DNA from: Rhizobium sp. CF080
GTDB taxonomy: Bacteria > Pseudomonadota > Alphaproteobacteria > Rhizobiales > Rhizobiaceae
Reading direction: 5' to 3'
DNA: 64,000 bases
NCBI RefSeq assembly: GCF_000282095.2
Contig: NZ_AKKC02000009.1
Span: 310,001-374,000 of the forward strand
The notes beneath the pieces are model-generated. The model searched no databases. It saw nothing but the letters and a program-made list of their open reading frames with translations, and was not told the origin of the DNA. Below are positions 29,127 to 48,747 of this stretch, piece after piece (the first letter of the stretch is position 1; every line of letters begins with the position of its first letter). The position numbers were made by a program, and so were the translations under genes.

Positions 29127-29152
29127 GGAACTTCCCGCATATCCGCGAAGTT
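29127..29152 (+). promoter_or_regulatory. Weak EcfG-like promoter candidate before the small lipoprotein
   Basis: GGAAC (29127-29131), 17 bp, then AGTT (29149-29152), 45 bp before the lipoprotein ATG. It departs from the CGTT consensus at the first base, so the support is only partial. Confidence 0.3.
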
Positions 29153-30985: not shown

Positions 30986-31084
30986 CCGGCACCAAAAAGT
31001 CCGGGTTCCGGAAAGGCTTTGCCCGCTGGCGAGGAACAATTTTCTCCCAGAACCATTCGGCAGGTGACAATTAAGGAGCCTGCA

Positions 31085-31333: not shown

Positions 31334-31412
31334 ATTCAAGCAAGTGCGATGCAACCACGGAAGGCGCGGTTCGACGCGCCTTCTCTTTTTTCGGTTATGC
31401 CTTTTTTGACCG

Positions 31413-31437
31413 GGAACATCTCCAGTCGGGGCCAGTT
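31413..31437 (+). promoter_or_regulatory. EcfG-like promoter candidate before the stress-type SDR
   Basis: GGAAC at 31413-31417, 16 bp, AGTT at 31434-31437, followed 41 bp later by the GTG start of the SDR gene. The -10 differs from CGTT in its first base only. Confidence 0.5.
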
Positions 31438-31478
31438 GGGGAGCTTCGTCAAGAACTTTCGAGAACAAGGAATTCTCC

Positions 31479-32336
31479 GTGGCTCAGTATCCCAGTCCGC
31501 CGTTTCCCGAACAGCAGCAGCCGATGCCGGGCTTTACCGGACGCATGGATCCGGTGCCGGATCATGGCGAGTTATCCTATCGCGGTTCCGGCCGGCTGGC
31601 CGGCAAGAGGGCGGTGATTACCGGTGGCGACAGCGGTATCGGCCGGGCTGTCGCGATCGCCTATGCGCGTGAGGGTGCCGATGTGCTGATTTCCTATCTC
31701 GACGAACACGAGGATGCCGAAGACACCAGGCGCGTTGTCGAAGAGGCCGGCCGCAAGGCGGTGCTGGTGCCGGGCGACATCAAGACCGCGGCGCATTGCC
31801 GGTCGATCATCGACAAGGCTGTCCAGGCGTTTGGCGGCATCGATATTCTCGTCAACAATGCCGCCCATCAGGCCACGTTTTCCGACATTGGAGACATCAG
31901 CGACGAGGAATGGGAGCTGACCTTCCAGGTCAATATCCATGCGATGTTCTATCTCACCAAGGCGGCGGTTCCCCACATGAAGCCGGGCAGTGCCATCATC
32001 AACACCGCCTCGATCAATTCCGACAGTCCGAACCCGACGCTGCTCGCCTATGCGACCACCAAGGGCGCGATCCAGAATTTCACGGCCGGCCTGGCTCAGC
32101 TGCTGGCCGAAAAGGGCATCCGCGCCAATACGGTCGCGCCGGGACCGATCTGGACGCCGCTGATCCCCTCCACCATGACGGAAGACCGGGTGAAGAATTT
32201 CGGCAAGCAGGTGCCGATGAAACGCCCGGGCCAGCCTGCCGAGCTCGCGACGGCCTATGTGATGCTCGCCGATCCGCTTTCCAGCTACGTTTCCGGCGCG
32301 ACGATCGCCGTCACCGGCGGCAAGCCGATCCTGTAG
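31479..32336 (+). CDS. SDR-family oxidoreductase, general-stress-protein-39-like
   Basis: A 285-residue SDR with a ~40-residue N-terminal extension (P-F-P-E-Q-Q-Q-P-M-P-G-F-T-G-R-M) typical of the YhdF/YghA-type stress dehydrogenases. The T-G-G-D-S-G-I-G cofactor motif is intact, Asp-Ile region and N-N-A-A follow, and the catalytic Ser and A-Y-A-T-T-K (Tyr/Lys) are present. Start is GTG at 31479. Substrate unknown; related proteins are annotated as general stress or glucose-1-dehydrogenase-like. A near-consensus EcfG promoter precedes it. Confidence 0.9.
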   Translation: MAQYPSPPFPEQQQPMPGFTGRMDPVPDHGELSYRGSGRLAGKRAVITGGDSGIGRAVAIAYAREGADVLISYLDEHEDAEDTRRVVEEAGRKAVLVPGDIKTAAHCRSIIDKAVQAFGGIDILVNNAAHQATFSDIGDISDEEWELTFQVNIHAMFYLTKAAVPHMKPGSAIINTASINSDSPNPTLLAYATTKGAIQNFTAGLAQLLAEKGIRANTVAPGPIWTPLIPSTMTEDRVKNFGKQVPMKRPGQPAELATAYVMLADPLSSYVSGATIAVTGGKPIL

Positions 32337-32361
32337 TTCTGCTCTCCTCCCGCGAAAACAG

Positions 32362-32391
32362 CGGCGGCGTGGCTCACGCCGCCGTTCCTGT
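32362..32391. terminator. Hairpin between convergent SDR and small gene
   Basis: A 10 bp perfect stem, CGGCGGCGTG and its complement, with a 3 nt loop (32362-32384). On the minus strand TTTT follows shortly after, and on the plus strand TTCC then TTT. It can serve both convergent genes. Confidence 0.7.
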
Positions 32392-32411
32392 TTGGCGAGA
32401 TGCCTCTTTTG

Positions 32412-32696
32412 TCAGGTGCGGCGGCCGACTTCCCGCGCCAGATCCTCGAAACAGCATTTCGTGCCCTGTTCGCTCGCCTCGTTGGCCAGAAGCAGGAGCC
32501 GGATCGGGAAGGCGATCGCCTTCTGGTGGGAAGTCGAGACGGCGAGGGGCTTGTCGTCGGCAAGCACCGTGCGTTCGGCCGCCTGCAGGGCGCCCTGGAT
32601 TTCTTCATGGGAGAGGACGCCTTTTTCAACCAGAAGCCGGTTGATCGCGGCAACGGCGAGATAGAGGCCTTCGAGCTGCGGATTGGCGGTGTTCAT
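32412..32696 (-). CDS. Small hypothetical protein (94 aa), coupled to ndh
   Basis: A 94-residue soluble helical protein (M-N-T-A-N-P-Q-L-E-G-L-Y-L-A-V). No family is named with confidence. Its ATG at 32696 overlaps the ndh stop (ATGA), so it is translationally coupled to the NADH dehydrogenase gene. It has a single Cys pair near the C-terminus (K-C-C-F-E). A regulatory or structural partner of Ndh is possible but is inference only. Confidence 0.65.
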   Translation of the reverse strand: MNTANPQLEGLYLAVAAINRLLVEKGVLSHEEIQGALQAAERTVLADDKPLAVSTSHQKAIAFPIRLLLLANEASEQGTKCCFEDLAREVGRRT

Positions 32697-34021
32697 GTCT
32701 CGGTCCTTTGCGTGGAAGACGGCACGGAGGTGGCGGCATTTTCGTCGATCAGCCGGGCGCCGCGCTGCTGGGTCAGGTAACGCCAGATCCATTGGACGCT
32801 GACGAGCAGGCGTTTTTCGAAATTGACCAGCAGGTAGACGTGGACGAGCGCCCAGAGGAACCAGGCGAGCCGGCCCTTCAGCGTCCACTTGCCGAAGTCG
32901 AAGATCGCCGCATCGCGGCCGATGACGGCGGTGTTGCCCCGATTGTGGAAGTGGAACGGCTCGGCCGGCTTGCCGTCAAGGAGTTTCGCCCGCAGCGCCT
33001 TGCCGAGGTACTGGCCCTGCTGCTTGGCGACCTGGGCTAGGGCCGGCAGCGGCTTGCCGTCCTCGGCAAGGCCCAGCGCCGTATCGCCGATCGCAAAAAT
33101 ATCCGGAAAGCCGGTGATGGAGAGGTCCGGTTCGACCGGAATGCGCCCGCCTGCCTTGCCTTCGATGCCGAGCCATCTGGCCGAGGGCGAGGCTTTGACG
33201 CCCGCACCCCAGATGACGCAGCTGGTGCGGAAACGCTGCGAGCCGGCGATGACCTCGTCCTTGGTGACAGATTCCACGGCCAGATTGGTCATCACCTCGA
33301 CGCCGGCCTTTTCCAGGGCCTTCATGGCATATTGGGTGAGGTTGTCGGGAAAGGTGGCGAGAATCTTCGGGCCGGCCTCGATGAGGATGACCCGCATGTG
33401 ATCCGGCTCCAGCTTGCGGAAGTCGCGGGCGATCATGAAATGACCGAGCTCGGCGATCGCGCCCGCCATTTCCACGCCGGTTGGACCGCCACCGATGATG
33501 ACGCTGGTGAGGAGCGCCTTTTTCTCCTCCGGATCGTGGGAAAGCTCGGCCTTCTCGAAGGCGAGCAGCAGGCGCTGGCGGATCAGCCGTGCCTCGTGAA
33601 TGGTCTTCAGCCCCGGAGCCCAGGCGCGCCAGTCGTCGTGGCCGAAATAGTTGTAATCCGAGCCGGTGGCGATGACGAGGCGGTCGTAGGGGACGGTGGA
33701 GCCGTTATCGAGCGTCACGGTTTTGCCCACCGCGTCGACGCCGGTGACTTCCGCCAGCATCACGTTGATGTTCTTGAAGCGCCCGAGCGTGCGGCGGATC
33801 GGCTCCGATATGTCGGCGGGAGACAGCGCGGCGGTCGCGACCTGATAGAGAAGCGGCTGGAAGAGATTGTGGTTGCGCCGGTCGATGACCGTCACGTCGA
33901 TGGCGCTGTTGCCGAGCGCGCCGGCAGTCGCAAGCCCGCCGAAACCGGCGCCGACGATGACGATGTGTGGTGGTTTGGTTTCGCCGCCCGCCATGCCGTT
34001 CTGAGAATTCTCACCCGCCAT
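32693..34021 (-). CDS. ndh: Type II NADH:quinone dehydrogenase-like flavoprotein
   Basis: A 442-residue NAD(P)/FAD oxidoreductase of the NDH-2 family. Two Rossmann dinucleotide motifs appear: I-V-G-A-G-F-G-G-L (FAD) near residue 20 and V-I-I-G-G-G-P-T-G-V-E-M (NADH) near 170. The quinone-site region A-Q-V-A-K-Q-Q-G lies later and a C-terminal hydrophobic segment F-L-W-A-L-V-H-V-Y-L-L-V may bind the membrane. It transfers electrons from NADH to quinone without pumping protons. A candidate EcfG promoter is upstream on the minus strand. Confidence 0.9.
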   Translation of the reverse strand: MAGENSQNGMAGGETKPPHIVIVGAGFGGLATAGALGNSAIDVTVIDRRNHNLFQPLLYQVATAALSPADISEPIRRTLGRFKNINVMLAEVTGVDAVGKTVTLDNGSTVPYDRLVIATGSDYNYFGHDDWRAWAPGLKTIHEARLIRQRLLLAFEKAELSHDPEEKKALLTSVIIGGGPTGVEMAGAIAELGHFMIARDFRKLEPDHMRVILIEAGPKILATFPDNLTQYAMKALEKAGVEVMTNLAVESVTKDEVIAGSQRFRTSCVIWGAGVKASPSARWLGIEGKAGGRIPVEPDLSITGFPDIFAIGDTALGLAEDGKPLPALAQVAKQQGQYLGKALRAKLLDGKPAEPFHFHNRGNTAVIGRDAAIFDFGKWTLKGRLAWFLWALVHVYLLVNFEKRLLVSVQWIWRYLTQQRGARLIDENAATSVPSSTQRTET

Positions 34022-34068
34022 TATGTCCCACCCTGTTGGCGGAGCAGAACTCCGCTGGACGCTCGTTC

Positions 34069-34093
34069 AACACACGCCAGGCCTGTTTGTTCC
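34069..34093 (-). promoter_or_regulatory. EcfG-like promoter candidate upstream of ndh
   Basis: Read on the minus strand: GGAAC (34093-34089), 16 bp, TGTT (34072-34069), 47 bp before the ndh start. It shares a palindromic GTTCCGG/CCGGAAC element with the divergent plus-strand promoter of the first microprotein gene. Confidence 0.45.
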
Positions 34094-34107
34094 GGGCATG
34101 TTTCACC

Positions 34108-34132
34108 GGAACCTTTTACGCCTGTCGCCGTT
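34108..34132 (+). promoter_or_regulatory. EcfG (RpoE2)-type promoter before microprotein gene
   Basis: GGAAC (34108-34112), 16 bp spacer, CGTT (34129-34132): an exact match to the alphaproteobacterial general stress sigma factor consensus. The ATG of the first 24-residue protein is 30 bp downstream with an AAAGGAGA ribosome site between. Confidence 0.8.
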
Positions 34133-34161
34133 CAATTTCACGACATCAAAAGGAGAACGTC

Positions 34162-34236
34162 ATGAACAGCATCGTTTGGTTGGTCGGCGCGGTCGTCATT
34201 GTCATCGCCGTGCTGAATCTCGTCGGGTTTGCTTGA
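34162..34236 (+). CDS. 24-residue membrane microprotein, copy 1
   Basis: A complete 24-codon frame reading M-N-S-I-V-W-L-V-G-A-V-V-I-V ... ending G-F-A. Almost all residues are hydrophobic, which fits one transmembrane helix with virtually no soluble domain. It has a strong AAAGGAGA ribosome site 7 bases upstream and an exact EcfG-type promoter. A near-identical second copy follows 64 bp later, which supports real coding. Such short hydrophobic proteins are known in rhizobia but lack a described role. Possible functions are membrane-stress adaptation or regulation of a membrane partner (inference). Confidence 0.75.
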   Translation: MNSIVWLVGAVVIVIAVLNLVGFA

Positions 34237-34300
34237 TTTATTGAATGAATCCAATCGGAAGCCTTGCTTCCACCTGGTGTGAACTGAAAAGGAGACAGTC

Positions 34301-34375
34301 ATGAACAGCATCGTATGGCTCGTTGGAGCCGTCGTCATCGTTCTCGCCGTTCTGTCCTTCATCGGCATAGCCTGA
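34301..34375 (+). CDS. 24-residue membrane microprotein, copy 2
   Basis: Tandem paralogue of the preceding gene: the first 14 residues are identical, and differences are limited to the C-terminal half (I/L, N-L-V-G-F versus S-F-I-G-I). It starts at 34301 after A-A-A-A-G-G-A-G-A, the same ribosome-site context as copy 1. No separate EcfG motif was found before it, so it is probably cotranscribed. A strong terminator follows 26 bp after the stop, closing the two-gene unit. Confidence 0.75.
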   Translation: MNSIVWLVGAVVIVLAVLSFIGIA

Positions 34376-34401
34376 TCGGTGAGAAGCAAAGCTGGAGAAT
34401 C

Positions 34402-34440
34402 AATAAGGCGCCGTCCCCTAAGGATCGGCGCCTTATTTTT
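34402..34440 (+). terminator. Intrinsic terminator of the microprotein unit
   Basis: A 12 bp perfect stem (AATAAGGCGCCG and its complement, 34402-34413 and 34426-34437) with a 12 nt loop and a run of T ending at 34440. It also lies before the end of treY on the opposite strand, and could serve both. Confidence 0.9.
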
Positions 34441-34469
34441 GTGGGCGGCTCTTTCGACGTGTCGGCGGA

Positions 34470-37013
34470 TCATTCCGCCAGCAGAAGCGCGAAGGGGTGA
34501 TCGGCGAACACCCCGTTGATCGTGATGTGGTCCTTGGGGTCGATCACCTTGCCGGTGCAGACGTCGCGGTAGCGGCGATGGCCCAGCTGTTCGGGCAGGG
34601 CGATCTCGGTTTCCGCCCAGCGTTCGGAGCGTGAGGGGGCAAACCCAGTGTGGAGCGCGCTGAACACCAGCCGCGGGACGATGACGATGAAGGCATCGTC
34701 CATGTCGGCGCGGGCGAAGGCAATGACGTTGTCGGCGCGCTTGCCCGATGCCGCGAGGGGGAGGTATTCGCCCCTGCGAAACAGTGTCGGTGCCTCTTGG
34801 CGAACGCGCAGCAGGGTGGCGATGACATGCTGTTTCAGCCGGCCGCTCAGCCATTCTTCCTCCTGCGTGGAGGTCAGTTTTTCCCTCTCCGACAGCCGTT
34901 GCTGTAGCATGTCGAAATCCGGTTCGCGGCGGTTGTCCGGGTCGACGAGGCTCAAGTCGAGGCTTTCGCTGCCCTGGTAGATATCCGGCACGCCGGGGGC
35001 CGCCAGCTTGATGATCGTCTGGGCGATGCCGTTTACCAGGCCGGCGCGGATGAACGGGCCGAGCGTGTCGGCGAAGTCCGTGAGAAAAGCCTGGTTGTCA
35101 GGGGAGAGGAGCGTGCGGGCATAGTCCATGACCGCCTTCTCGTAGGCTTCGTTGGGATCGCCCCAGTTGGTACGCAGTTTTGCCTCACGCAGCGCCTTTT
35201 CGACATAGGCGAGGAAACGTGTCTCCAGCGCTTTCAGGCCTGCCGCGTCTTCCCCGTAGAGATCGTTCGGCCATGCGCCGGCCAGCGCCTGGTAGAGCAT
35301 CCATTCGACAGCCGGCTCCGGCGCCGGGCCGTCATCAAGTACCTGTACAGAGTGGCCGTTGATCTTGCGCCAGCGGGTCACGGCATCGGCCCAGAGCTCG
35401 GGTGCCTCGGTGATCGCGTAGAGCCGGGCGCGGGCATCCTCGCCGCGCTTGGTGTCATGGGTCGAGGTGCCGGACAGCGCATCGGGCTGCTTTTCCAGCC
35501 GCGTCCGCATTTCCGTGTGGAAACGGTCGAGAGAGAAGGGGCGGGGCAGGGGCTCGGCTCCGACCTCGTTCAGCGCCAGCGCCATGTGCTGCCGGAAGAA
35601 CAGCGTGTCCTCCACCGATTTTGCCATCAGCGGACCGGTGAGCTGCTGGAACCGGGTGCGGAAGATCGACGCCTTGCCGCCCGCCGCTTGTTCGACATCG
35701 CCGACCAGGATGCGTTCGAGGAAGGCGAGCGCCGTATCCTCCGGCGGGTTCGGGCCGTTGCGCACCTTGTCGAGAACCTTTGCCAGCATCTCCCGGCCCT
35801 CGGGCGGAATGCCCTCCCGCGTGCCATAGGTGCGGTAGACCGGGAAGGTGACCAGCAGCTCCCGCAGCGCCGACTTCACAGCCGCTTCCGAGAGGGCGGA
35901 TTCGCGGTCCTCGGTGGGCTGGATCTGCATCGCGATATTCAAGAGCGTCGAGACCTCGCCGGCGAAATTGTTGTCGGCCATCAAGAGTTTCGCGGCCCGC
36001 AGCTCGGCTTCCATATCGACCGGCCGGCCGGCAACCTTTTCATACGCGCCTCGAAGGTCGTCCAGCTTTCGGCCATCGACCAGCGCGTCACTCACGGCTG
36101 CGATGAACTCGTAACCCGTCGTGCCGGAGATCGGCCAGTCGGCCGGGATCTGCTCGCCCTCGCCAAGGATCTTTTCGACGGTGATGTAGCAGTCCGGCCC
36201 GGCCTCGTGCCGCAGGCGCTCAAGATAACCCTTCGGGTCGGCAAGGCCGTCGACATGATCGACGCGCAGCCCATCGACCTTGCCGCTATGGACGAGTTCG
36301 AGGATCAGCCGGTGGGTATCGTCGAACACGGTGCCGTCCTCCACCCGCATGCCGGCAAGCCCGGTGATCTCGAAGAAACGGCGGTAAGAGAGTTCGCGGG
36401 GCGCATCCCGCCAGGACATCAGCCGGTAGGGCTGCTGGTCGTGCAGTTTGGCAATCGCGGCGCGATCGGTAACTTTCAGCACCTCTTCCTGGCGGCCGGC
36501 GTAACTCGCCGGTGCCAGCGGATAAAGCGTGTCGTAGTAGGCGAGCGCGGGCTTGCCGGTCTTCGGATCAGCCTTGAGGGAAATCTCCCCGGCTTCCACT
36601 ACCTTCTCAAACGTATCGCCGAGGAAGGGCAGGGTCAGGGATCTGGTCCAGTCGATATCGAAATGGCGGGCATATCTGCTCTTCTCGCCATTCTCGACGA
36701 CATCGCGCCACCAGGGATTTTCGAGCGATGCGGCCATGTGGTTCGGGACGATGTCGAGGATCAGGCCAAGGCCTTCGGCCTTCAATGCCTTCACCATCCG
36801 CTCGAAACCGTCGCGGCCGCCGATCGCTGGGTCGATCTCGTTGGCGTCGGTCACGTCGTAGCCGTGGGTGGAACCGGTCGTGGCGGTGAAGATCGGCGAG
36901 GCGTAGAGGTGGCTGATGCCGAGCCGCTTCAGATAGGGCACCAGGCTGCTTGCCCGATCGAAGGTCATGCCGTTGCGGAACTGGATGCGATAGGTGGCGG
37001 TCGGAATCATCAT
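34470..37013 (-). CDS. treY: Malto-oligosyltrehalose synthase
   Basis: An 847-residue GH13-family enzyme that isomerises the reducing-end maltose of malto-oligosaccharides to trehalose. Family segments seen are T-Y-R-I-Q-F-R-N-G-M at the N-terminus, I-L-D-I-V-P-N-H-M-A, the catalytic region G-L-R-V-D-H-V-D-G-L-A-D-P and a T-S-T-H-D-T-K-R-G-E-D motif. The start overlaps the treZ stop (ATGA), so the pair is translationally coupled. It makes maltooligosyl-trehalose, which TreZ then cleaves. Confidence 0.95.
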   Translation of the reverse strand: MMIPTATYRIQFRNGMTFDRASSLVPYLKRLGISHLYASPIFTATTGSTHGYDVTDANEIDPAIGGRDGFERMVKALKAEGLGLILDIVPNHMAASLENPWWRDVVENGEKSRYARHFDIDWTRSLTLPFLGDTFEKVVEAGEISLKADPKTGKPALAYYDTLYPLAPASYAGRQEEVLKVTDRAAIAKLHDQQPYRLMSWRDAPRELSYRRFFEITGLAGMRVEDGTVFDDTHRLILELVHSGKVDGLRVDHVDGLADPKGYLERLRHEAGPDCYITVEKILGEGEQIPADWPISGTTGYEFIAAVSDALVDGRKLDDLRGAYEKVAGRPVDMEAELRAAKLLMADNNFAGEVSTLLNIAMQIQPTEDRESALSEAAVKSALRELLVTFPVYRTYGTREGIPPEGREMLAKVLDKVRNGPNPPEDTALAFLERILVGDVEQAAGGKASIFRTRFQQLTGPLMAKSVEDTLFFRQHMALALNEVGAEPLPRPFSLDRFHTEMRTRLEKQPDALSGTSTHDTKRGEDARARLYAITEAPELWADAVTRWRKINGHSVQVLDDGPAPEPAVEWMLYQALAGAWPNDLYGEDAAGLKALETRFLAYVEKALREAKLRTNWGDPNEAYEKAVMDYARTLLSPDNQAFLTDFADTLGPFIRAGLVNGIAQTIIKLAAPGVPDIYQGSESLDLSLVDPDNRREPDFDMLQQRLSEREKLTSTQEEEWLSGRLKQHVIATLLRVRQEAPTLFRRGEYLPLAASGKRADNVIAFARADMDDAFIVIVPRLVFSALHTGFAPSRSERWAETEIALPEQLGHRRYRDVCTGKVIDPKDHITINGVFADHPFALLLAE

Positions 37014-38821
37014 GCGGCGTCTCCCGCGGTTCCGGCGCGGACGAGGACGGAATTGGGCGGCAGGTCCTTCACCTGTTCAGGCCATGCAAAGATCACCTTG
37101 CCGGGCATGTCCGGCAGCGCCTGCGCCTTCTCGCCGATATTGATCGCCATCGAGAGCGTGCCTTTCGGAAAATTCCACGATACGGCAAGGAAACCCCTGT
37201 CGGTCCTCAGCACCTTGCCGGAGCGACCGCCCGCGGAGCCGAGCAGGGGGACGACGATCTCCCGCCGCAGCTTCAGCAGCGTCCTCGTCAATTCCAGCCA
37301 GTCCTTGCCATTAGCCGATTCCAGCTTCTTCCAGTCGAGCCTCGATACATCGAAGGTCTTTCTGGCGTTCGGGTCGGGAACGGTCTCACCCTCGTGGCCG
37401 GCATGGCCTTCAAACTCCCGGCGGCGGCCATCGCGCACCGCTTTCGCGAGATCGCCATGGAAATCGGTGAAGAACAGGAAGGGGTTGGTCTCGCCATATT
37501 CCTCGCCCATGAAGAGGAGCGGGATATGCGGCGAGAGGAGAAGCATGGCGAGCAGCGACTTCACCTTGTCGGGGCCGGCGAGTTCGATCAGCCTTTCGCC
37601 CTCGGCGCGGTTGCCGACCTGGTCGTGGTTCTGGATGAAATCGACGAAGGCGACCGGCGGCTGATCGAGGCTCGAAACGCCTCGCTTTTTGCGGCTCTGG
37701 TGCGAGACCTCGCCCTGATAGGCAAAACCTTCGGCGAGCGCCCGCGCCACCAGCTTCTCAGGTTCCTTTGCGAAGTCCCTGTAGTAGCCATGCGTTTCGC
37801 CGGTCGCAAAAACGTGCGCTGCGTTGTGGAGGTCGTCGTTCCATTCGGCGGTGAAGAGCGGCGCCTTGCCGTCCTCGTCGCGGGGATGCAGGAAAGTGAC
37901 GTTGCGGGCGTCCTCGGTCGTCAGATGGATGGCGCGTTCGGGGATCTCGGCGCGGATGCGTTCGGCGATCTCGACCAGTACATGTTTTTCCGATGAATCC
38001 TCGATCTGGTCGATGGCGTCGAAACGCAGCCCGTCTAGGTGGAATTCTTCCAGCCAGTAGAGCGCGCATTCGGTGATGTAACGCCGCACCGGCTCGACGT
38101 CATACGCGATCGCAGCGCCCCAGGGCGTCATCTTTTGCCTGTGGAAGAAGTCGGGCGCCAGAAGCGGCAGATAATTGCCTTCCGGGCCGAAATGGTTGAG
38201 CACGAGGTCAAGCACCACCGTCAGCCCATGACCATGGGCGGCGTCGATAAACGCCTTGAAATCCTCCGGCGCGCCGTAGGCGGCATGTGGCGCATAGAGG
38301 AGAACGCCGTCATAACCCCAGCCGCGATTGCCGCCGAAATGGGCGACCGGCATGACCTCGATCATGGTGACGCCCATTTCGGCGAGATGGGGCAGCTTGT
38401 CGATCGCGGCGCGGAACGTGCCTTGCTCGGTAAAGGTGCCGATATGGATTTCGTAGACGACCGTTTCCTCCCAGGGTTGGCCCTGCCATTCGGGATGCTG
38501 CCATGTGTAGCTGGTCGGATCGATCACCAGCGAGGGACCGTTGACGCTGTCCTTCTGGCCGCGCGAGGCAGGATCGGGCACCACCATGCCGTCGGCGAGC
38601 ACATAGGCATATTCCGCTCCGGGAGCGATGCCGGTGGCGAGCAGCTCGAACCAGCCGTCGTCGGTGCGGGTCATTTCCGTATCGTCGCCGTTCAGCCTCA
38701 GCGTTACGCTCTTCTGGCCCGGTGCCCAGAGCCGGAACCGCACCTCGCCGGCAGCGACATATTCGGCTCCCCATGTCTTTGGAAACGCCCGATACTCGGT
38801 GACGGCATTGAGTTCCGACAT
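37010..38821 (-). CDS. treZ: Malto-oligosyltrehalose trehalohydrolase
   Basis: A 603-residue GH13 enzyme with an N-terminal CBM48-like domain (W-G-A-E-Y ... V-R-F-R-L-W-A-P), then the catalytic barrel with the D-G-L-R-F-D-A-I-D nucleophile segment and H-L-T-T-E-D. It releases free trehalose from the TreY product. The ATG at 38821 is preferred because an exact EcfG promoter lies 33 bp upstream; a longer frame would run through that promoter. No treX, glgP or treS gene is in the window. Confidence 0.95.
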   Translation of the reverse strand: MSELNAVTEYRAFPKTWGAEYVAAGEVRFRLWAPGQKSVTLRLNGDDTEMTRTDDGWFELLATGIAPGAEYAYVLADGMVVPDPASRGQKDSVNGPSLVIDPTSYTWQHPEWQGQPWEETVVYEIHIGTFTEQGTFRAAIDKLPHLAEMGVTMIEVMPVAHFGGNRGWGYDGVLLYAPHAAYGAPEDFKAFIDAAHGHGLTVVLDLVLNHFGPEGNYLPLLAPDFFHRQKMTPWGAAIAYDVEPVRRYITECALYWLEEFHLDGLRFDAIDQIEDSSEKHVLVEIAERIRAEIPERAIHLTTEDARNVTFLHPRDEDGKAPLFTAEWNDDLHNAAHVFATGETHGYYRDFAKEPEKLVARALAEGFAYQGEVSHQSRKKRGVSSLDQPPVAFVDFIQNHDQVGNRAEGERLIELAGPDKVKSLLAMLLLSPHIPLLFMGEEYGETNPFLFFTDFHGDLAKAVRDGRRREFEGHAGHEGETVPDPNARKTFDVSRLDWKKLESANGKDWLELTRTLLKLRREIVVPLLGSAGGRSGKVLRTDRGFLAVSWNFPKGTLSMAINIGEKAQALPDMPGKVIFAWPEQVKDLPPNSVLVRAGTAGDAA

Positions 38822-38853
38822 GCTGGTCAGCCCCTGGTTGAGAGAGACCGGCA

Positions 38854-38878
38854 AACGGTCGAAGTCGCTTCCGGTTCC
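38854..38878 (-). promoter_or_regulatory. EcfG (RpoE2)-type promoter of treZY
   Basis: On the minus strand GGAAC (38878-38874), 16 bp, CGTT (38857-38854), an exact consensus match with the -10 about 32 bp before the treZ ATG. Trehalose synthesis is a known output of the alphaproteobacterial general stress response. Confidence 0.85.
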
Positions 38879-39009
38879 ATTGTGGGGCACGGGCGCAATA
38901 AAATTGCGCGGGGGAGCAACAAATAACAAGTTCCAGGGAGTGGTCGGCGGCCCGGTTCAGTCCTAATTTAGTAAGTATATGCAGGCGGTTTCGGGGAGGA
39001 GATCAGTGC

Positions 39010-40140: not shown

Positions 40141-40151
40141 GGAGGACGGGC

Positions 40152-40919: not shown

Positions 40920-40933
40920 ACGACTGATTTTGA

Positions 40934-42190
<1,257 letters not shown>

Positions 42191-42221
42191 GGATGGCTGT
42201 TCTTAGATGTCTTCGCCCTTG

Positions 42222-42350
42222 GCTCCCCCTCATCCGCCTGCCGGCACCTTCTCCCCGCTGGGGAGAAGAGGATATGCCGCGCGGCCTCCGATCCTCCTCT
42301 CCCCAGCGGGGAGAGGGTGGCCGAGCAAAGCGGAGGCCGGGTGAGGGGGC
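42222..42350. repeat. Nested-hairpin intergenic repeat inside the bkd operon
   Basis: A ~129 bp palindromic element. The outer ends (GCTCCCCCTCATCCG and C-G-G-G-T-G-A-G-G-G-G-G-C) are imperfect inverted copies. Inside are two perfect hairpins, TTCTCCCC-GCT-GGGGAGAA and CTCTCCCC-AGC-GGGGAGAG, which are themselves complementary. The same architecture is found at 61597-61771. It resembles the RIME-type mosaic elements of Rhizobiaceae and is probably non-coding. Confidence 0.85.
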
Positions 42351-42407
42351 TGCTTGCTCCGGCCTTGAGATCGCTTGTTCCGGCGTTTCAGCATCGGAGG
42401 CCCTCCC

Positions 42408-43421: not shown

Positions 43422-43424
43422 GAC

Positions 43425-44744
43425 ATGGCGGAAAAGCTCATCAAGCTGCCGGATGTCGGCGAAGGTGTCGCGGAAGCCGAACTGGTGGAATGGCACGTCA
43501 ACGTCGGCGATCTTGTGCGTGAGGACATGGTGCTCGCCGCGGTGATGACCGGCAAGGCGACTGTCGAGATCCCGTCGCCTGTGGATGGCGAGGTAACCTT
43601 CCGGTACGGCGAGATCGGCGACGTGATCGCCACCGGCACCGTCATCCTCAAGATCAGGATCGCGGGCGAGGGCGCTGGCGACGAAGAAGAGATCGAGGGC
43701 GGCGATAGCGGGGAGGAGCCACGGGTCAAGCCGGCTATTCCGCCCGTTGCAGCTCTCGAACAGGCATCTGAGAAAAAGGTTGAACCTCTTAAACCAAAAG
43801 CTGAGATCGCCGCATCACCACCCGTCGCCAAGGCTCTGCCCCATGCCGCCGGTGCACCCCGCGCCGAAGGTGAGAAGCCGCTGGCGCCGCCGGCCGTGCG
43901 TCTCCGGGCGAAAGAGGCAGGCATCGATCTTCGGCAGGTCCCGGGCACAGGTCCGGCGGGCCGCATCACCCATGAGGATCTGGATGCTTTCCTGAACAGC
44001 CAGCCCGGCAGCGGGGCAATCGCTGCCGGGCTGCAGCCGAACAAGGCGGTGCAGGAGGTCAAGGTCGTCGGCCTGCGCCGTCGCATCGCCGAGAAGATGG
44101 CGCTGTCGAAATCCCGCATTCCCCACATCACCTATGTGGAGGAGATCGACATGACCGCGCTCGAAGAGCTGCGGACCCGGATGAACGGCACCCAGAAGCC
44201 GGGCCGCCCGAAACTCACCATCCTGCCCTTCCTGATGCGGGCGATGGTGAAGGCGATCGCCGAGCAGCCGGGCATCAACGCGCTTTACGACGACGAGGCC
44301 GGCATCATCCGCCACTATGGCGGGGTGCATATCGGCATCGCGGCGCAGACGCCATCGGGCCTCGTCGTGCCGGTAGTCAAGCACGCCGAGGCGCGCGACA
44401 TCTTCGACTGCGCCCACGAGGTGGCCCGGCTCAGCGATGCCGCCAAGAACGGCACGGCCCTGCGCGAGGAACTGTCGGGCTCGACGATCACCATCAGTTC
44501 GCTTGGCGCCATGGGCGGCATCGTCTCGACGCCGGTCATCAACCATCCGGAAGTGGCGATCATCGGCGTCAACAAGCTCGCCGTCCGGCCCCATTGGGAC
44601 GGGGCGCAGTTCGTGCCGCGCAAGATGATGAACCTGTCCTCCAGCTTCGATCACCGGGTGATCGACGGCTGGGATGCCGCGACTTTCGTGCAGCGCCTGA
44701 AGGCGCTGATGGAAACGCCGGCGCTAATCTTCGTCGAGGAGTGA
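43425..44744 (+). CDS. bkdB: Dihydrolipoamide acyltransferase (BCKDH E2)
   Basis: A 439-residue E2. The N-terminal lipoyl domain has its lipoylated Lys in M-T-G-K-A-T-V-E-I (about residue 42); the more usual M-T-D-K-A is changed to G-K. A long Ala/Pro/Glu/Lys-rich linker (about 85-155) precedes the peripheral-subunit-binding domain (P-A-V-R-L-R-A-K-E-A-G-I-D), then the catalytic domain with H-R-V-I-D-G-W. It is the core of the complex. Confidence 0.95.
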   Translation: MAEKLIKLPDVGEGVAEAELVEWHVNVGDLVREDMVLAAVMTGKATVEIPSPVDGEVTFRYGEIGDVIATGTVILKIRIAGEGAGDEEEIEGGDSGEEPRVKPAIPPVAALEQASEKKVEPLKPKAEIAASPPVAKALPHAAGAPRAEGEKPLAPPAVRLRAKEAGIDLRQVPGTGPAGRITHEDLDAFLNSQPGSGAIAAGLQPNKAVQEVKVVGLRRRIAEKMALSKSRIPHITYVEEIDMTALEELRTRMNGTQKPGRPKLTILPFLMRAMVKAIAEQPGINALYDDEAGIIRHYGGVHIGIAAQTPSGLVVPVVKHAEARDIFDCAHEVARLSDAAKNGTALREELSGSTITISSLGAMGGIVSTPVINHPEVAIIGVNKLAVRPHWDGAQFVPRKMMNLSSSFDHRVIDGWDAATFVQRLKALMETPALIFVEE

Positions 44745-44759
44745 GGTGAGAGAAAAACA

Positions 44760-46178
44760 ATGAAAGAGATCACCTGCAAGCTCCTCGTCATCGGGGCCGG
44801 TCCGGGAGGCTATGTCTGCGCCATCCGGGCCGGCCAGTTGGGGGTCGACACCGTCATCGTCGAAATGGCGAAGCCGGGCGGCACCTGCCTCAATATCGGC
44901 TGCATTCCCTCCAAGGCGATCATCCATGCGGCCGACGATTTCGCGAAGACCGTCGCTATGGCGGCCGGCAAAAATGCCATGGGCATCAAGGCCGACAATC
45001 CGGCCATCGACCTTGCCAAAACCATGGCCTGGAAGGACGGCATTACCGGCCGGCTGACGCTCGGTGTTGCGGGCCTGCTGAAGAAGGCCGGCGTCAAGAT
45101 CGTCGTCGGTCGGGCAAAATTCCGGGACGGCAAGACGGTCGCGGTGGAGACCGAAACCGGCGAACAGGTCATCCGCGCCGAAAATATCGTTATCGCCACG
45201 GGGTCGGCGCCGGTCGAGCTGCCGATGCTACCGTTCGGGGGCTTGGCATCGCCTTCCGGGGCTAAGGTGATTTCCTCGACCGGTGCGCTGTCCCTGACCG
45301 AGGTGCCCGCGAGGCTGGCTGTGGTTGGCGCCGGTTATATCGGTCTGGAGCTCGGGCTTGCATTCGCCAAACTCGGAGCGAAGGTGACGATCGTCGAGGC
45401 GCTCGACCGCATCCTGCCGCTCTACGATACGCAGCTCACCCAGCCGGTCGCCAAACGGTTGGCGGCCTTGGGCGTCGAGGTTTTGCTCGGCACCAAGGTC
45501 AAGGGCATGTCCTCGAACGGCGAGGCGCTGCTGGCGGAGACCGGCTCGGGCGAGGAAAGGCGCATCGCCGCCGACAAGATCCTCGTCACGGTTGGGCGCA
45601 AGCCGGTCACCGAAGGCTGGGGTCGGGAGGAACTGGAACTCGACATGGACGGTCGGTTCCTTCGGATCGACGAACAGTGCCGCACCTCGATGCGCGGCAT
45701 CTATGCGGTCGGCGACGTGACCGGCGAGCCGATGCTGGCGCACCGGGCGATGGTGCAGGGCGAGATGGTGGCGGAGATCGTTTCCGGCAAACGCCGCGCC
45801 TGGGACAAACGGGCCATTCCCGCCGTCTGCTTCACCGACCCGGAAATCGTCTCGGTGGGCCTGTCCCCGGACGAGGCGAAGGCGGCGGGCCGCGAGATCA
45901 AGATCGGGCAGTTCCCGTTTTCCGCCAATGGCCGGGCGATGACGCTGTCGGCGGAGGAGGGCTTCGTGCGGGTCGTGGCGCGGGCCGACAATCACCTGGT
46001 GCTCGGCATCCAAGGTGTCGGGGCGGGGATTTCCGAACTCTCGGCGGCGTTCTCGCTGGCGATCGAGATGGGGGCGAGGTTGGAAGATATCGCGGGGACG
46101 ATCCATGCCCACCCGACGCAGTCGGAGGCGTTTGCTGAGGCGGCGCTGAAGGCGCTGGGGCATGCGCTGCATATCTGA
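44760..46178 (+). CDS. lpdV: Dihydrolipoamide dehydrogenase (E3)
   Basis: A 472-residue flavoprotein disulfide reductase. The redox Cys pair is in G-G-T-C-L-N-I-G-C-I-P-S-K, the NAD motif in V-V-G-A-G-Y-I-G-L-E and the acid-base His in H-A-H-P-T-Q-S-E near the C-terminus. It reoxidises the lipoyl groups of BkdB. It closes the bkd operon with a 15 bp gap from bkdB. Confidence 0.96.
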   Translation: MKEITCKLLVIGAGPGGYVCAIRAGQLGVDTVIVEMAKPGGTCLNIGCIPSKAIIHAADDFAKTVAMAAGKNAMGIKADNPAIDLAKTMAWKDGITGRLTLGVAGLLKKAGVKIVVGRAKFRDGKTVAVETETGEQVIRAENIVIATGSAPVELPMLPFGGLASPSGAKVISSTGALSLTEVPARLAVVGAGYIGLELGLAFAKLGAKVTIVEALDRILPLYDTQLTQPVAKRLAALGVEVLLGTKVKGMSSNGEALLAETGSGEERRIAADKILVTVGRKPVTEGWGREELELDMDGRFLRIDEQCRTSMRGIYAVGDVTGEPMLAHRAMVQGEMVAEIVSGKRRAWDKRAIPAVCFTDPEIVSVGLSPDEAKAAGREIKIGQFPFSANGRAMTLSAEEGFVRVVARADNHLVLGIQGVGAGISELSAAFSLAIEMGARLEDIAGTIHAHPTQSEAFAEAALKALGHALHI

Positions 46179-46246
46179 GCGGTTCGGCGTCAAGTCGCCG
46201 TGGACACCCGGATCACCGCGGGGTACTCGTGTGAGAAACGGGGGCG

Positions 46247-46600
46247 ATGATGAAGAAACTGCTTGCGATATGCTTCTCGTGCATGCTCGTGCCGGCAGCG
46301 GCGCTTGCCGAAACGCGTTGCGGCTGGCTGATCAATCCGACGCCCCGCAACTGGACGCTGATCGATGCCCAGAACGAATGGCTGAGCATGCTTCAGGGCG
46401 GCTACGAAGCCAAAGGCATGGACAAGATCAAGGACATGGCCGAGGGCGAGCATGTGACGATAAACTACAGTCACGGCTACGCCTGCTTCTGCATGAACGT
46501 TTCGAGCGACAAGGACGGAAGCATCAAGCAGATTTTCTCCACCCGTCAGCTGCCCCTTTCAAAATGCCGACGCGATCCTGCACTCAGCGAGCCTAGATGA
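46247..46600 (+). CDS. DUF4087 secreted protein
   Basis: A 117-residue protein with a signal peptide (M-M-K-K-L-L-A-I-C-F ... A-A-A-L-A-E). The mature domain has four Cys residues (R-C-G-W ... Y-A-C-F-C-M ... S-K-C-R), suggesting disulfides, and matches DUF4087 (R-C-G-W-L-I-N-P-T-P-x-N-W-x-L). Likely periplasmic. Function unknown. ATG 46247 or 46250 are both possible. It lies between lpdV and the convergent metallophosphoesterase. Confidence 0.85.
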   Translation: MMKKLLAICFSCMLVPAAALAETRCGWLINPTPRNWTLIDAQNEWLSMLQGGYEAKGMDKIKDMAEGEHVTINYSHGYACFCMNVSSDKDGSIKQIFSTRQLPLSKCRRDPALSEPR

Positions 46601-46656
46601 ACAATTAGGCCTCTCGCCCGGTGTCCTGTCCAGAGGCGTTTGGTCGCGATAACGGA

Positions 46657-47412
46657 CTAAAGCTCGAGCAGCGCATACGGCTTCCCGCTCGGCTTCTCGA
46701 TATGCGAGGCGACGTTGTAGACAGGGGCGCCGCCCGGCGTCCTGCCTTCGTAGGTACCGCGATGCGCGTGGCCATGAACCACGGCTTTCACCGGAAACCG
46801 GTCGATAGTCTCGGCCAGCCGCGACGAGCCGAGAAACGGATAGATTTCCTCCGGCTCGCCGACCACGGTTTCGCGGATCGGCGCGTAGTGCAGAATGACC
46901 ATGGCCCGCTCCGAGCGGACCTGACGCAGCGCGTTTTCGAGCCGCATCGTTTCCTCGACGCTTTCGGTCACCATCGCCTTGATCGCCGGCTCGCCGAAGG
47001 AGCCGAGCATGTGCCGCCCGAAACCGCCCGCGAAACCCTTGGCGCCGGCGAAACCGACGCCATTGATCTCCACCGCCTGGCCCTCCAACAGGTTGATGCC
47101 GGCCTCCTTGAGGATATGGGTGACTTCTTCGACGCAGCCGCATTCGTAATCGTGATTGCCGAGAACGCCGACGATCGGGATGGAGCAGGCGCGCAGGTCG
47201 GAAGCCAGGATTTCCGCTTCCTTGACCTTGCCGAGGTCGGTGAGATCGCCGGTCAGGACGAGGATGTCGGCAGCCTGGGAAATCTCGGTGAACAGCTCCT
47301 TGTAGGATACCGTGCCGTGTTCCTTGACATGCAGGTCGCCCATGGCGGCGATCCTGAGTTTGCCGTTTACTTTCCTGGCAGCGTCGTTCTTCGCGTCGGT
47401 CGCTTTGCTCAC
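46657..47412 (-). CDS. Calcineurin-like metallophosphoesterase
   Basis: A 251-residue phosphoesterase with the five canonical motifs: G-D-L-H, T-G-D-L-T-D, G-N-H-D-Y, I-L-H-Y-A-P and G-H-A-H-R-G, which bind two metal ions. The substrate is unknown. Its start overlaps the stop of the nucleotidyltransferase gene (47409-47412), so the two proteins are probably made in a fixed ratio and act together. Confidence 0.93.
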   Translation of the reverse strand: MSKATDAKNDAARKVNGKLRIAAMGDLHVKEHGTVSYKELFTEISQAADILVLTGDLTDLGKVKEAEILASDLRACSIPIVGVLGNHDYECGCVEEVTHILKEAGINLLEGQAVEINGVGFAGAKGFAGGFGRHMLGSFGEPAIKAMVTESVEETMRLENALRQVRSERAMVILHYAPIRETVVGEPEEIYPFLGSSRLAETIDRFPVKAVVHGHAHRGTYEGRTPGGAPVYNVASHIEKPSGKPYALLEL

Positions 47413-48278
47413 GCCAAGCCTCCCTGGGCCATTTCCTCTTCGACGCCGTCACGAAGGTCGCCTTCGCCGCCCACGTCGGCAAAACCCCATTCCTTGACGT
47501 CGATCTCGAAATCCACCCGGCTGAACATGCGGCCGCGGCAGATCTTCATCTGCGGCAGCGGCAGTTCGCGCTGCGCCTTCAACCGGTCGAGCAGTTCGTC
47601 CAGCAGCCAGTCCGGCACCTTGTCGCGTTCGGTCGGGTAGATCCAGCGGAAGTTCAGGAGGTGGATCAGCAGCACCTCCCAATGCACTTCCATATGGTTC
47701 AGCAGTCGCTCCCAATCGATCTGGTCGTGGGCGCGCAGGATCATATGGACGATATCGCCGCCGTCGTAGCGGTGGCGGAGCTGCACGAAACATTTCGACC
47801 AGATGAGTTCGGTCGGCGCGATGATGCGCACCTTGTGGCCGTTCATCTCGATCTGGCGGGCGTTTTCGAACCAGGCGTCGCTGATCGGCATGGTGCCGTT
47901 CGAGGCGGCGAAGATGACGTCGAAGAAATGCCGGCCCTTCTTCACCTTGCCGAGCCAGCGGTCGTCCTCCACCTCGATATGATAACCCTTGTCCTTGAAG
48001 TGCGCGAGGATGCGGGCGTAGTCGCCGGCCTTGCAGAAGATGTCGAGATCCTTCGTCTGGCGGGTGATGCCCGTATAGGCGCTGATGGCGAACGTGCCGG
48101 CCAGCAGGAACGGGATATGGCAGTTGGCGAGATCCTCAACCGCCTCGGCGACAAAGGCTTCGGAATCCGCGTCGGCAAGCGTCGGCGCGGCCTTCACCTC
48201 CATCCCCGGCATGGTGTCGACCGGATGGGTGGCCTTCTCCCTCGGCAGGCTCTGCGCGGCATTCGCTTCGGCATTCAT
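47409..48278 (-). CDS. Nucleotidyltransferase-fold protein
   Basis: A 289-residue protein. The catalytic-type motif T-R-Q-T-K-D-L-D-I-F supplies the two Asp residues of a pol-beta-like nucleotidyltransferase, with a third Asp in the F-F-D-V-I-F segment. The region before it has the G-T-F-A-I-S-A-Y helix typical of such proteins. Substrate and nucleotide are not identifiable. ATG at 48278. It is translationally coupled to the metallophosphoesterase, and a minus-strand EcfG-like promoter candidate lies 34 bp upstream. Confidence 0.8.
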   Translation of the reverse strand: MNAEANAAQSLPREKATHPVDTMPGMEVKAAPTLADADSEAFVAEAVEDLANCHIPFLLAGTFAISAYTGITRQTKDLDIFCKAGDYARILAHFKDKGYHIEVEDDRWLGKVKKGRHFFDVIFAASNGTMPISDAWFENARQIEMNGHKVRIIAPTELIWSKCFVQLRHRYDGGDIVHMILRAHDQIDWERLLNHMEVHWEVLLIHLLNFRWIYPTERDKVPDWLLDELLDRLKAQRELPLPQMKICRGRMFSRVDFEIDVKEWGFADVGGEGDLRDGVEEEMAQGGLA

Positions 48279-48311
48279 TACGGGATCTCCGAATTTGGCT
48301 TCGCGCAGAGG

Positions 48312-48337
48312 AACACCCGGGCATGCCCGGAGGTTCC
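48312..48337 (-). promoter_or_regulatory. EcfG-like promoter candidate before the nucleotidyltransferase gene
   Basis: On the minus strand GGAAC (48337-48333), 17 bp, TGTT (48315-48312), about 33 bp before the start. The element sits within a near-perfect 28 bp palindrome with the core CCGGGCATGCCCGG, whose symmetry also gives GGAAC on the plus strand. Confidence 0.5.
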
Positions 48338-48389
48338 GCTTTGCGTCGTTTTCGAGATATGGGCTGTGTCAGCGCCTGGGGATTGTCGG

Positions 48390-48414
48390 GGAACCAAAGC
48401 CGCGATTGGCTGTT
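48390..48414 (+). promoter_or_regulatory. EcfG-like promoter of the DUF3008 gene
   Basis: GGAAC (48390-48394), 16 bp, TGTT (48411-48414), 31 bp before the DUF3008 ATG. Only the first -10 base differs from CGTT. Confidence 0.65.
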
Positions 48415-48445
48415 GGATTTGGTGTGCAAACTCGAGGAGGCAGAC

Positions 48446-48634
48446 ATGCCAGCGAAATCCAAGGCACAGCAGAAGGCGGCCGGCGCAGCACTTGCCGCCA
48501 AACGCGGGGACATCAAGAAGGGCGAACTTAAGGGCGCTTCGAAGGGCATGGAAAAGTCCATGAGCGAAAAGCAGCTCGAAGATTTCGCCTCGACCAAGCG
48601 CAAGGGCAAACCGGATCACGTCGCCCATCACTGA
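48446..48634 (+). CDS. DUF3008 family small basic protein (62 aa)
   Basis: A 62-residue highly charged protein (M-P-A-K-S-K-A-Q-Q-K-A-A-G-A-A-L ... F-A-S-T-K-R-K-G-K-P). This is the DUF3008 pattern, common in Rhizobiales and often stress-induced. Gly/Ala/Lys content suggests an intrinsically disordered, possibly nucleic-acid or desiccation-related protein, without proof. GAGGAGG ribosome site before ATG 48446. Confidence 0.88.
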   Translation: MPAKSKAQQKAAGAALAAKRGDIKKGELKGASKGMEKSMSEKQLEDFASTKRKGKPDHVAHH

Positions 48635-48684
48635 CGAGATGCCCGATTTGCCGAGACGCACTGATCGGCTTCCGGTCCGAGACC

Positions 48685-48709
48685 GGAACTTCGCGCAAAG
48701 ATAGGCGTT
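48685..48709 (+). promoter_or_regulatory. EcfG (RpoE2)-type promoter of a small unknown gene
   Basis: GGAAC (48685-48689), 16 bp, CGTT (48706-48709): an exact consensus match, 38 bp before the ATG at 48748. Confidence 0.8.
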
Positions 48710-48747
48710 TTTCGGAGCGCTCGTCTTTGCGTGGAGGAGGAAAAGTT

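What the first reader, a model, noticed from the sequence alone, without database searches (positions are those of the whole stretch)
31413..48709. Locally concentrated EcfG (general stress) promoters driving known and uncharacterised genes
Seen in sequence: three exact GGAAC-N16-CGTT matches at 34108-34132 (microprotein), 38854-38878 minus (treZ) and 48685-48709 (76-residue gene). Near matches with a changed first -10 base occur before DUF3008 (48390, TGTT), the nucleotidyltransferase gene (48337 minus, N17, TGTT), ndh (34093 minus, TGTT) and the GSP39-like SDR (31413, AGTT). Distances from -10 to start are mostly 30-48 bp, which is consistent. Established: this is the consensus of the alphaproteobacterial sigma factor EcfG/RpoE2, and trehalose synthesis is a known member of its regulon. 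Inference: the unknown small genes here are stress effectors.
Basis: partly seen in the sequence, partly recalled or inferred. Interest (0 to 1): 0.8.

Follow-up and report, generated by a model that had tools for sequence, protein, structure and literature searches.

The report
Stress-gene island with hidden 24-residue proteins
A 20-kb stretch of a Neorhizobium-type genome carries a cluster of conserved promoters for the bacterium's general stress switch, and one of them drives a pair of 24-residue hydrophobic proteins, apparently too short for gene finders, whose relatives turn up in many other bacteria, often behind the same kind of promoter.

Summary
All three exact GGAAC-N16-CGTT sites and four near matches are present; a further site, at 29127, was missed. 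Exact-match counts alone prove nothing (3 in the window, 1.02 expected; 114 in the genome, reversed control 109). Two other tests carry the claim. The relaxed motif is concentrated: 9 sites in 29-49 kb, none in the other 44 kb, about 1 expected per 20 kb. Across orthologues GGAAC and GTT stay fixed while the spacer drifts: among all dyads counted, GGAAC/GTT ranks first (84 of 144 upstream regions; next 24). The genome has phyR, nepR, ecfG and EcfG-like paralogues.

The notable part is the "microprotein": a tandem pair of 24-residue, single-span hydrophobic proteins conserved at the protein level. The family matched all 57 genus genomes searched and reaches other orders and classes. Of 99 leading copies fetched, 66 have the motif within 140 bp; the reversed control has none. 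It has no Pfam or NCBIfam model and no listed gene in one S. meliloti record.

EcfG control is well supported but inferred. "Stress effectors" is plausible; what the microprotein does is unknown, most likely a stress-induced small membrane subunit. The 76-residue gene's promoter is confined to close relatives.

The parts
29127..29152 (+).
   Evidence: motif before 5 of 7 dereplicated orthologues
29198..29500 (+). 100-residue ORF of unknown family
   Evidence: orthologues in relatives; no NCBIfam model at E up to 0.01; Pfam not run
31413..31437 (+). EcfG-type promoter, N16, AGTT
   Evidence: 9 of 9 dereplicated orthologues
31479..32336 (+). SDR oxidoreductase
   Evidence: Pfam adh_short_C2
34069..34093 (-). 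EcfG-type promoter, N16, TGTT, for ndh
   Evidence: relaxed motif in 9 of 9 orthologues listed, but only 2 of 2 after dereplication
32693..34021 (-).
   Evidence: Pfam Pyr_redox_2
34108..34132 (+). EcfG-type promoter, exact GGAAC-N16-CGTT, for the microprotein pair
   Evidence: 17 of 17 in the window plus 16 relatives; 12 of 12 dereplicated
34162..34236 (+). microprotein 1, 24 residues, one hydrophobic span
   Evidence: pN/pS 0.06 among sequences picked by a peptide pattern
34301..34375 (+). microprotein 2, tandem paralogue, 24 residues
   Evidence: pN/pS 0.12, same caveat
34402..34440 (+). intrinsic terminator-like hairpin plus T run, between microprotein 2 and the convergent treY
   Evidence: fold -24 kcal/mol, z -4.5; the consensus scanner did not flag it
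38854..38878 (-). EcfG-type promoter, exact, for treZY
   Evidence: CGTT motif within 150 bp in 16 of 16 relatives with Neorhizobium-type treZ, 3 of 31 other Alphaproteobacteria (16 of 31 relaxed) and 0 of 33 Enterobacterales
37010..38821 (-). treZ
   Evidence: ATG at 38821; alpha-amylase domain
34470..37013 (-). treY
   Evidence: alpha-amylase domain; next to treZ in relatives
48312..48337 (-). EcfG-type promoter, N17, TGTT, with a palindromic spacer
   Evidence: 12 of 17 dereplicated orthologues
47409..48278 (-). uncharacterised nucleotidyltransferase (PF14907)
46657..47412 (-). metallophosphoesterase, overlaps the nucleotidyltransferase gene; no motif of its own (0 of 5)
48390..48414 (+). 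EcfG-type promoter, N16, TGTT
   Evidence: 24 of 25 dereplicated orthologues
48446..48634 (+). DUF3008 protein, 62 residues
48685..48709 (+). EcfG-type promoter, exact, before the 76-residue gene
   Evidence: only 7 of 22 dereplicated orthologues; 6 of 21 loci
48748..48978 (+). 76-residue protein, no known family, no PDB fold match

Best explanation
Window 29-49 kb is a general-stress-response island. At least seven transcription units (29198 gene, SDR, ndh, microprotein pair, treZY, nucleotidyltransferase-phosphoesterase, DUF3008) each carry their own EcfG-type promoter, and in the closest relatives the 76-residue gene does too. Under stress PhyR would free EcfG from NepR (established mechanism, recalled) and EcfG would switch the units on together (inferred). 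The shortest unit runs from the 34108 promoter through two 24-residue hydrophobic microproteins to a terminator-like hairpin. The microproteins belong to a widespread family for which I found no name. Most likely they insert as single helices in the inner membrane and accumulate as a small accessory subunit that packs against a larger membrane protein or complex to adjust it under stress. Shown: sites, conservation of motif and peptide, distribution. Inferred: EcfG dependence, translation, membrane insertion. Guess: the accessory-subunit role, about 0.45 on its own; the confidence given below is for the island, its EcfG control and the microproteins being real membrane proteins, not for that role.
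For: Promoters: dyad GGAAC/GTT in 84 of 144 dereplicated upstream regions, next dyad 24; microprotein 12/12, treZ 11/11, SDR 9/9, DUF3008 24/25, nucleotidyltransferase 12/17, 29198 gene 5/7, ndh 2/2, 76-residue gene 7/22; other genes 0/5, 0/6, 0/4, 0/4, 0/4 and treY 2/16. GSR core with ECF sigma factor, NepR, PhyR and an HWE kinase. Microprotein: 57 of 57 genus genomes, 142 of 346 in the family sample, 87 of 347 in the order sample, 20 of 289 in the class sample. Relaxed EcfG motif within 140 bp before 66 of 99 leading copies in fetched loci, reversed control 0 of 99; before the leading copy in 15 of 19 named genomes that have the family (these partly overlap the unnamed ones). pN/pS 0.06 and 0.12. 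Co-occurrence with NepR: 16 of 19 carriers against 31 of 269 non-carriers. Among 78 distinct peptides no charged residue at positions 4-22, only Y or W at position 6, and M1, G9, V12, L18, G22 invariant. S. meliloti copy behind GGAAC-N16-CGTT at -25.
Against: No expression, start-site or mutant data. The exact motif is not in excess in the whole genome. 33 of 99 leading copies lack the motif; copies outside the class exist (9 genomes), and the two I read showed no EcfG motif, nor did one further same-class copy, so EcfG control is not intrinsic to the family. The fetched loci are the best-scoring matches, not a random sample. The pN/pS sets were chosen with a peptide pattern, which holds pN down. 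No constant neighbour that would name a partner. Conservation is not confined to one helix face (moment test 0.15). Paralogues 41% identical to EcfG mean the responsible sigma factor is not identified.
Confidence: 0.85

Rival explanations
1. The 24-residue proteins are hydrophobic toxins of the type I toxin-antitoxin sort, induced by stress to depolarise the membrane or force dormancy.
For: Size, hydrophobicity and tandem copies resemble such toxins (resemblance recalled).
Against: Family spread over many genera with invariant residues; no Rfam family at gathering score in 29000-49300; no sigma-70-like promoter for an antisense RNA in 33900-34600 (a weak test); the -10 ends 29 bp from the start, leaving little leader for RNA control.
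Confidence: 0.12
2. The transcript is a regulatory RNA and the ORF is incidental.
For: S. [quoted passage not shown]
Against: Variable columns by codon position are 9, 0 and 20 of 24 (microprotein 1) and 9, 2 and 22 of 24 (microprotein 2), pN/pS 0.06 and 0.12, with the caveat that sequences were picked by a peptide pattern; 78 distinct peptides share invariant residues; the stretch of microprotein 1 folds no better than shuffles (186 of 200 shuffles at least as stable). Length 24 in 123 of 130 copies is weaker evidence, because where several starts were possible I took the ATG giving the length nearest 24.
Confidence: 0.04
3. The promoters are read by another ECF sigma factor, or by an EcfG paralogue, rather than by the EcfG next to NepR.
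For: Two paralogues 41% identical (C9:553583, C12:354065) and five more distant hits; in Rhizobium etli EcfG1 and EcfG2 have different regulons (PMC3892343, passages).
Against: The motif equals the one reported for R. etli EcfG1, GGAAC-N16-CGTT, and fits the S. melonis EcfG motif GGAAC-N17-20-GTT.
Confidence: 0.15
4. Chance matches in G+C-rich DNA.
For: Exact-motif counts are near the controls in window and genome.
Against: Density, position and conservation.
Confidence: 0.01

Closest known systems
EcfG / RpoE2 regulons (Rhizobium etli, Sinorhizobium meliloti, Sphingomonas melonis)
   Same: Motif, spacing and GSR core; trehalohydrolase gene EcfG-dependent in S. melonis (PMC6599016, passages)
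   Different: Here several units sit together as an island, and one encodes a microprotein family that did not appear in the passages I read of PMC3616915, PMC3892343 and PMC6599016
S. meliloti small proteins of Hadjeras et al. 2023, SEP6 (PMC10117765, passages)
   Same: SEP6 is under 30 residues, has a predicted transmembrane helix, was detected predominantly in P100 and is conserved in Hyphomicrobiales
   Different: Its sequence is in supplements I could not open; identity with this family is unproved
Small single-span accessory proteins of membrane complexes (CydX, KdpF, AcrZ, MgtS; recalled)
   Same: Length class, one hydrophobic helix, strong conservation
   Different: No partner operon here; no sequence relationship tested
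Type I toxins such as TisB, Ibs, Ldr (recalled)
   Same: Hydrophobic, very short, tandem copies
   Different: Wide conservation, stress sigma promoter close to the start, no antisense RNA found in a weak test

Membership tests
EcfG-dependent promoter | GGAAC -35, 16-17 bp, (C)GTT -10 | tested here: met
EcfG-dependent promoter | position and conservation in front of orthologous genes | tested here: met
   for the 76-residue gene only 7 of 22 orthologues; ndh rests on 2 dereplicated regions
EcfG-dependent promoter | cognate sigma, anti-sigma and PhyR in the genome | tested here: met
EcfG-dependent promoter | start site just after the -10 and loss of expression in an ecfG mutant | not testable with these tools
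   needs RNA data
translated small protein | purifying selection at codon level | tested here: met
   pN/pS 0.061 (33 sequences), 0.122 (31); sequences were selected by a peptide pattern, so the values are biased low
single-span membrane protein | hydrophobic helix of about 19 residues without charge | tested here: met
   no D, E, K, R or H at positions 4-22 in 78 of 78 peptides; no dedicated predictor was available
single-span membrane protein | membrane localisation | not testable with these tools
   needs a tagged protein
type I toxin | antisense RNA antitoxin | tested here: inconclusive
   no Rfam family; no sigma-70-like site
type I toxin | toxicity on overexpression | not testable with these tools
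   needs experiment
known Pfam or NCBIfam family (microprotein) | profile match | tested here: not met
   copy 1, Pfam, E up to 0.1; both copies, NCBIfam, E up to 0.01

The most novel reading that the evidence does not exclude
A 24-residue membrane protein, systematically missed because it is shorter than the usual 30-codon floor of gene finders, is a core output of the alphaproteobacterial general stress response and works as a stress-switched subunit of a conserved membrane complex.
Probability: 0.35. Interest if true: 0.85.

Novelty: new member of a known kind. Interest (0 to 1): 0.62.

Why it matters
In S. meliloti 150 of the 202 genes raised by rpoE2 overexpression lacked a predicted function (PMC3616915, passages), and what the general stress response does at the membrane is open. 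A very short protein, present in all 57 genomes of this genus searched and common across related families, often behind an EcfG-type promoter, is a concrete and easily deleted candidate. It also suggests that annotation with a 30-codon floor hides members of this regulon.

Tried and rejected
Rejected: exact-motif counting as proof (no excess). The idea that Neorhizobium acquired treZY from Enterobacterales and then gained the promoter: the treZ tree puts the Enterobacterales inside the Neorhizobium-type clade, so transfer the other way with loss of the promoter fits better (quick tree, SH-aLRT only, midpoint root, built from the best 80 hits, one of them dropped). A helix-face argument for the microprotein: moment test 0.15. 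A constant genomic partner: neighbours vary. A fold match for the 76-residue protein: model pLDDT 85.5, no PDB match below E 0.001. tblastn of the 24-mer against plasmids: no match, probably because so short a query cannot reach the E-value limit there. Literature strings of the peptide: 0 papers; DUF3008: 0 papers. The first upstream alignment of the 76-residue gene did not turn minus-strand loci round and was redone.

Weak points: the 20 comparison stretches were set by me at round coordinates after seeing the exact-site list, and none holds an exact site, so they understate the background; I used the whole-genome count instead. In one search, L155 and L182 are same-genus copies inside the family and order groups, L168 and L178 are the same place, and start codons were chosen nearest to 24 residues. 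In one search the sequences were chosen by a peptide pattern. Orthologue starts not covered by the tblastn match were extrapolated or, beyond residue 25 or 6, dropped. The genus, family, order, class and phylum samples overlap and each includes the window's own genome. The species of G handles is not told; Neorhizobium is inferred from named neighbours.
Full report
WHAT WAS CLAIMED AND WHAT IS THERE. All seven are present. Their -10 ends lie 29-47 bp before starts with sensible genes behind them. A relaxed search adds 29127-29152 +, before a 100-codon ORF, and 48310 +, the mirror half of a palindrome. The treZ start is the ATG at 38821; treZ and treY overlap by four bases.

CHANCE. The exact motif is not enriched as such: 3 in the window against 1.02 in shuffles (11 of 100 reach 3), 114 in the genome against 109 for the reversed pattern. 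The relaxed motif GGAAC-N17/18-GTT occurs 348 times against 293 for its control, so most sites in the genome are background. What is unusual is the clustering: 9 of the window's 9 relaxed sites (two of them halves of one palindrome) lie in 29001-49000, where 0.99 are expected; Poisson P is 1e-6, 4e-4 after 352 bins. Other clusters exist, with 13 relaxed sites in C9:537500-556500 and 8 in C12:22000-38000; both stretches were fetched because they held exact sites.

CONSERVATION. I collected upstream regions of thirteen window genes plus microprotein 1 from relatives, dereplicated them below 80% ungapped identity, and counted every 5-mer/3-mer dyad at that spacing. GGAAC/GTT leads with 84 of 144 regions; the next dyads reach 24. 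By gene: microprotein 12 of 12, treZ 11 of 11, SDR 9 of 9, DUF3008 24 of 25, nucleotidyltransferase 12 of 17, 29198 gene 5 of 7, ndh 2 of 2, 76-residue gene 7 of 22. Genes without an assigned promoter: phosphoesterase 0 of 5, amidase 0 of 6, acyl-CoA dehydrogenase 0 of 4, bkdA 0 of 4, DUF4087 0 of 4, treY 2 of 16. For treZ the CGTT form lies within 150 bp in 16 of 16 relatives of the Neorhizobium type, in 3 of 31 other Alphaproteobacteria (16 of 31 for the relaxed form) and in 0 of 33 Enterobacterales. The first base of the -10 varies between and within genes, which fits the published S. melonis motif GGAAC-N17-20-GTT (PMC6599016, passages); R. etli EcfG1 uses GGAAC-N16-CGTT (PMC3892343, passages).

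REGULATOR. The genome holds NepR beside an ECF sigma factor, a PhyR with sigma-like and receiver domains, and an HWE histidine kinase, with motif sites in that region too. Two paralogues 41% identical to this sigma factor and five more distant hits exist; one, at C9:553583, has an N17 CGTT site just upstream at C9:553499. Which sigma factor reads which promoter is not decided here.

ARRANGEMENT. In nine relatives (L050-L053, L059, L075, L076, L080, L082) the nucleotidyltransferase and phosphoesterase genes lie directly before treZ, with DUF3008 beyond (positions). In the window a block of about 7.6 kb (39010-46600: acyl-CoA dehydrogenase, four genes of a branched-chain-type 2-oxoacid dehydrogenase, DUF4087) lies between them, and the same wide spacing is seen in L044, L045, L047-L049 and L060. 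That the block is a later insertion is inference.

THE MICROPROTEIN PAIR. At 34162 and 34301 lie two 24-codon ORFs with ribosome-binding-site-like sequences, giving MNSIVWLVGAVVIVIAVLNLVGFA and MNSIVWLVGAVVIVLAVLSFIGIA. A strong hairpin with a T run follows at 34402 (-24 kcal/mol, z -4.5), though the consensus scanner missed it; a hairpin before a T run was found after the last copy in 9 of 16 relatives. Microprotein 1 with its motif at -28 to -31 is in the window and all 16 relatives with Neorhizobium-type treZ; microprotein 2 was found by the pattern in 11 of those 16. 33 different DNA sequences of microprotein 1 give 8 peptides, pN/pS 0.061; 31 of microprotein 2 give 14, pN/pS 0.122. These sequences were picked with a peptide pattern, which lowers pN; the variable third positions (20 and 22 of 24) against second positions (0 and 2) still point to coding.

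DISTRIBUTION. A profile of the pair matched 57 of 57 genus genomes (limit E 0.1, weakest best match 3.6e-12) and 142 of 346 in the family sample, 58 of 109 genera. A wider profile matched 87 of 347 in the order sample, 20 of 289 in the class sample and 29 of 299 in the phylum sample, 9 of them outside the class; all samples include the window's own genome and overlap. In named genomes it matched 19 of 25 Alphaproteobacteria and 0 of 6 Enterobacterales; 15 of those 19 have the motif within 140 bp of a leading copy. In the 99 loci L124-L222 (best-scoring matches) 130 copies were read, 123 of 24 residues (start chosen nearest 24). Of 99 leading copies 66 have the relaxed motif within 140 bp (genus 26 of 30, family 12 of 24, order 17 of 26, class 11 of 19); the reversed control has 0 of 99. 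In the 69 from the wider searches the observed 40 compares with a mean of 0.53 for letter permutations, the highest being 10 (CGGAA/GTT). In the class sample, carriers other than the window's genome have NepR in 16 of 19 cases, non-carriers in 31 of 269 (Fisher 1.5e-11, not corrected for relatedness). Two copies outside the class and one more within it, read, lack the motif.

ANNOTATION AND LITERATURE. No Pfam match (copy 1) and no NCBIfam match (both copies). In the S. meliloti Ak57 record CP090106 the homologue sits between two DUF1236 genes behind GGAAC-N16-CGTT at -25, and no listed gene covers it (the PLSDB table is incomplete). PMC10117765 states that 30 residues is the shortest annotated ORF of S. 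meliloti (passages); that gene finders commonly stop at 30 codons is recalled. The same paper reports SEP6, under 30 residues with a predicted transmembrane helix, predominantly in P100 and conserved in Hyphomicrobiales (passages). It may be this family; I could not see the sequence. Searches for peptide strings (0 papers) and for combined terms showed no paper naming the family in the listings I saw.

THE OTHER SMALL GENES. DUF3008 has the motif before 24 of 25 dereplicated orthologues. The 76-residue protein is in 21 of 36 genus genomes and 0 of 24 others of the order that were searched, well conserved, and predicted as a small alpha-beta fold (pLDDT 85.5) without a PDB match below E 0.001. 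Its EcfG site is confined to the closest relatives, though in several others (L013-L017, L019, L021, L022) the gene still follows DUF3008 closely, so read-through from the DUF3008 promoter is possible there.

HOW IT PROBABLY WORKS. Stress signal, PhyR phosphorylation, release of EcfG from NepR (established, recalled), then coordinated firing of these promoters (inferred). Trehalose made by TreYZ protects the cytoplasm (known role, recalled). The microproteins should insert into the inner membrane: no charged residue at positions 4-22 in 78 of 78 distinct peptides, an aromatic residue at position 6, M1, G9, V12, L18 and G22 invariant, and Arg the commonest last residue, 42 of 78. The invariant glycines suggest helix packing against a partner, but conservation does not fall on one face and no partner gene was seen to travel with them, so the accessory-subunit role is a guess at about 0.45; bulk membrane effects about 0.2, toxin about 0.12, remainder unknown.

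Noticed in passing
34470-38821 (treZY); loci L044-L123: Enterobacterales treZ nests inside the Neorhizobium-type rhizobial clade, which suggests transfer from Rhizobiaceae to Enterobacterales with loss of the EcfG promoter: CGTT motif within 150 bp of 16 of 16 rhizobial copies of this type, relaxed motif in 0 of 33 enteric ones (a wider look to 300 bp shows two distant relaxed matches).
   Followed up: partly
48310-48337: Palindromic spacer (CCGGGCATGCCCGG core) within the EcfG-like site before the nucleotidyltransferase gene, partly kept in relatives; perhaps an additional operator.
   Followed up: no
39010-46600: Acyl-CoA dehydrogenase, branched-chain-type 2-oxoacid dehydrogenase genes and a DUF4087 gene separate the nucleotidyltransferase-phosphoesterase genes from treZ here but not in nine relatives.
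   Followed up: partly
L024 (G000:C9:537500-556500): A denser set of 13 relaxed EcfG motifs in 19 kb, including one just before an EcfG-like paralogue.
   Followed up: partly
L269 (S. meliloti Ak57 CP090106), 2979-5039: Four exact GGAAC-N16-CGTT sites within about 2 kb, around two DUF1236 genes and the microprotein homologue.
   Followed up: partly
46657-48278: Uncharacterised nucleotidyltransferase overlapping a metallophosphoesterase gene, under a conserved EcfG-type promoter; possible modify/demodify pair, function unknown.
   Followed up: no
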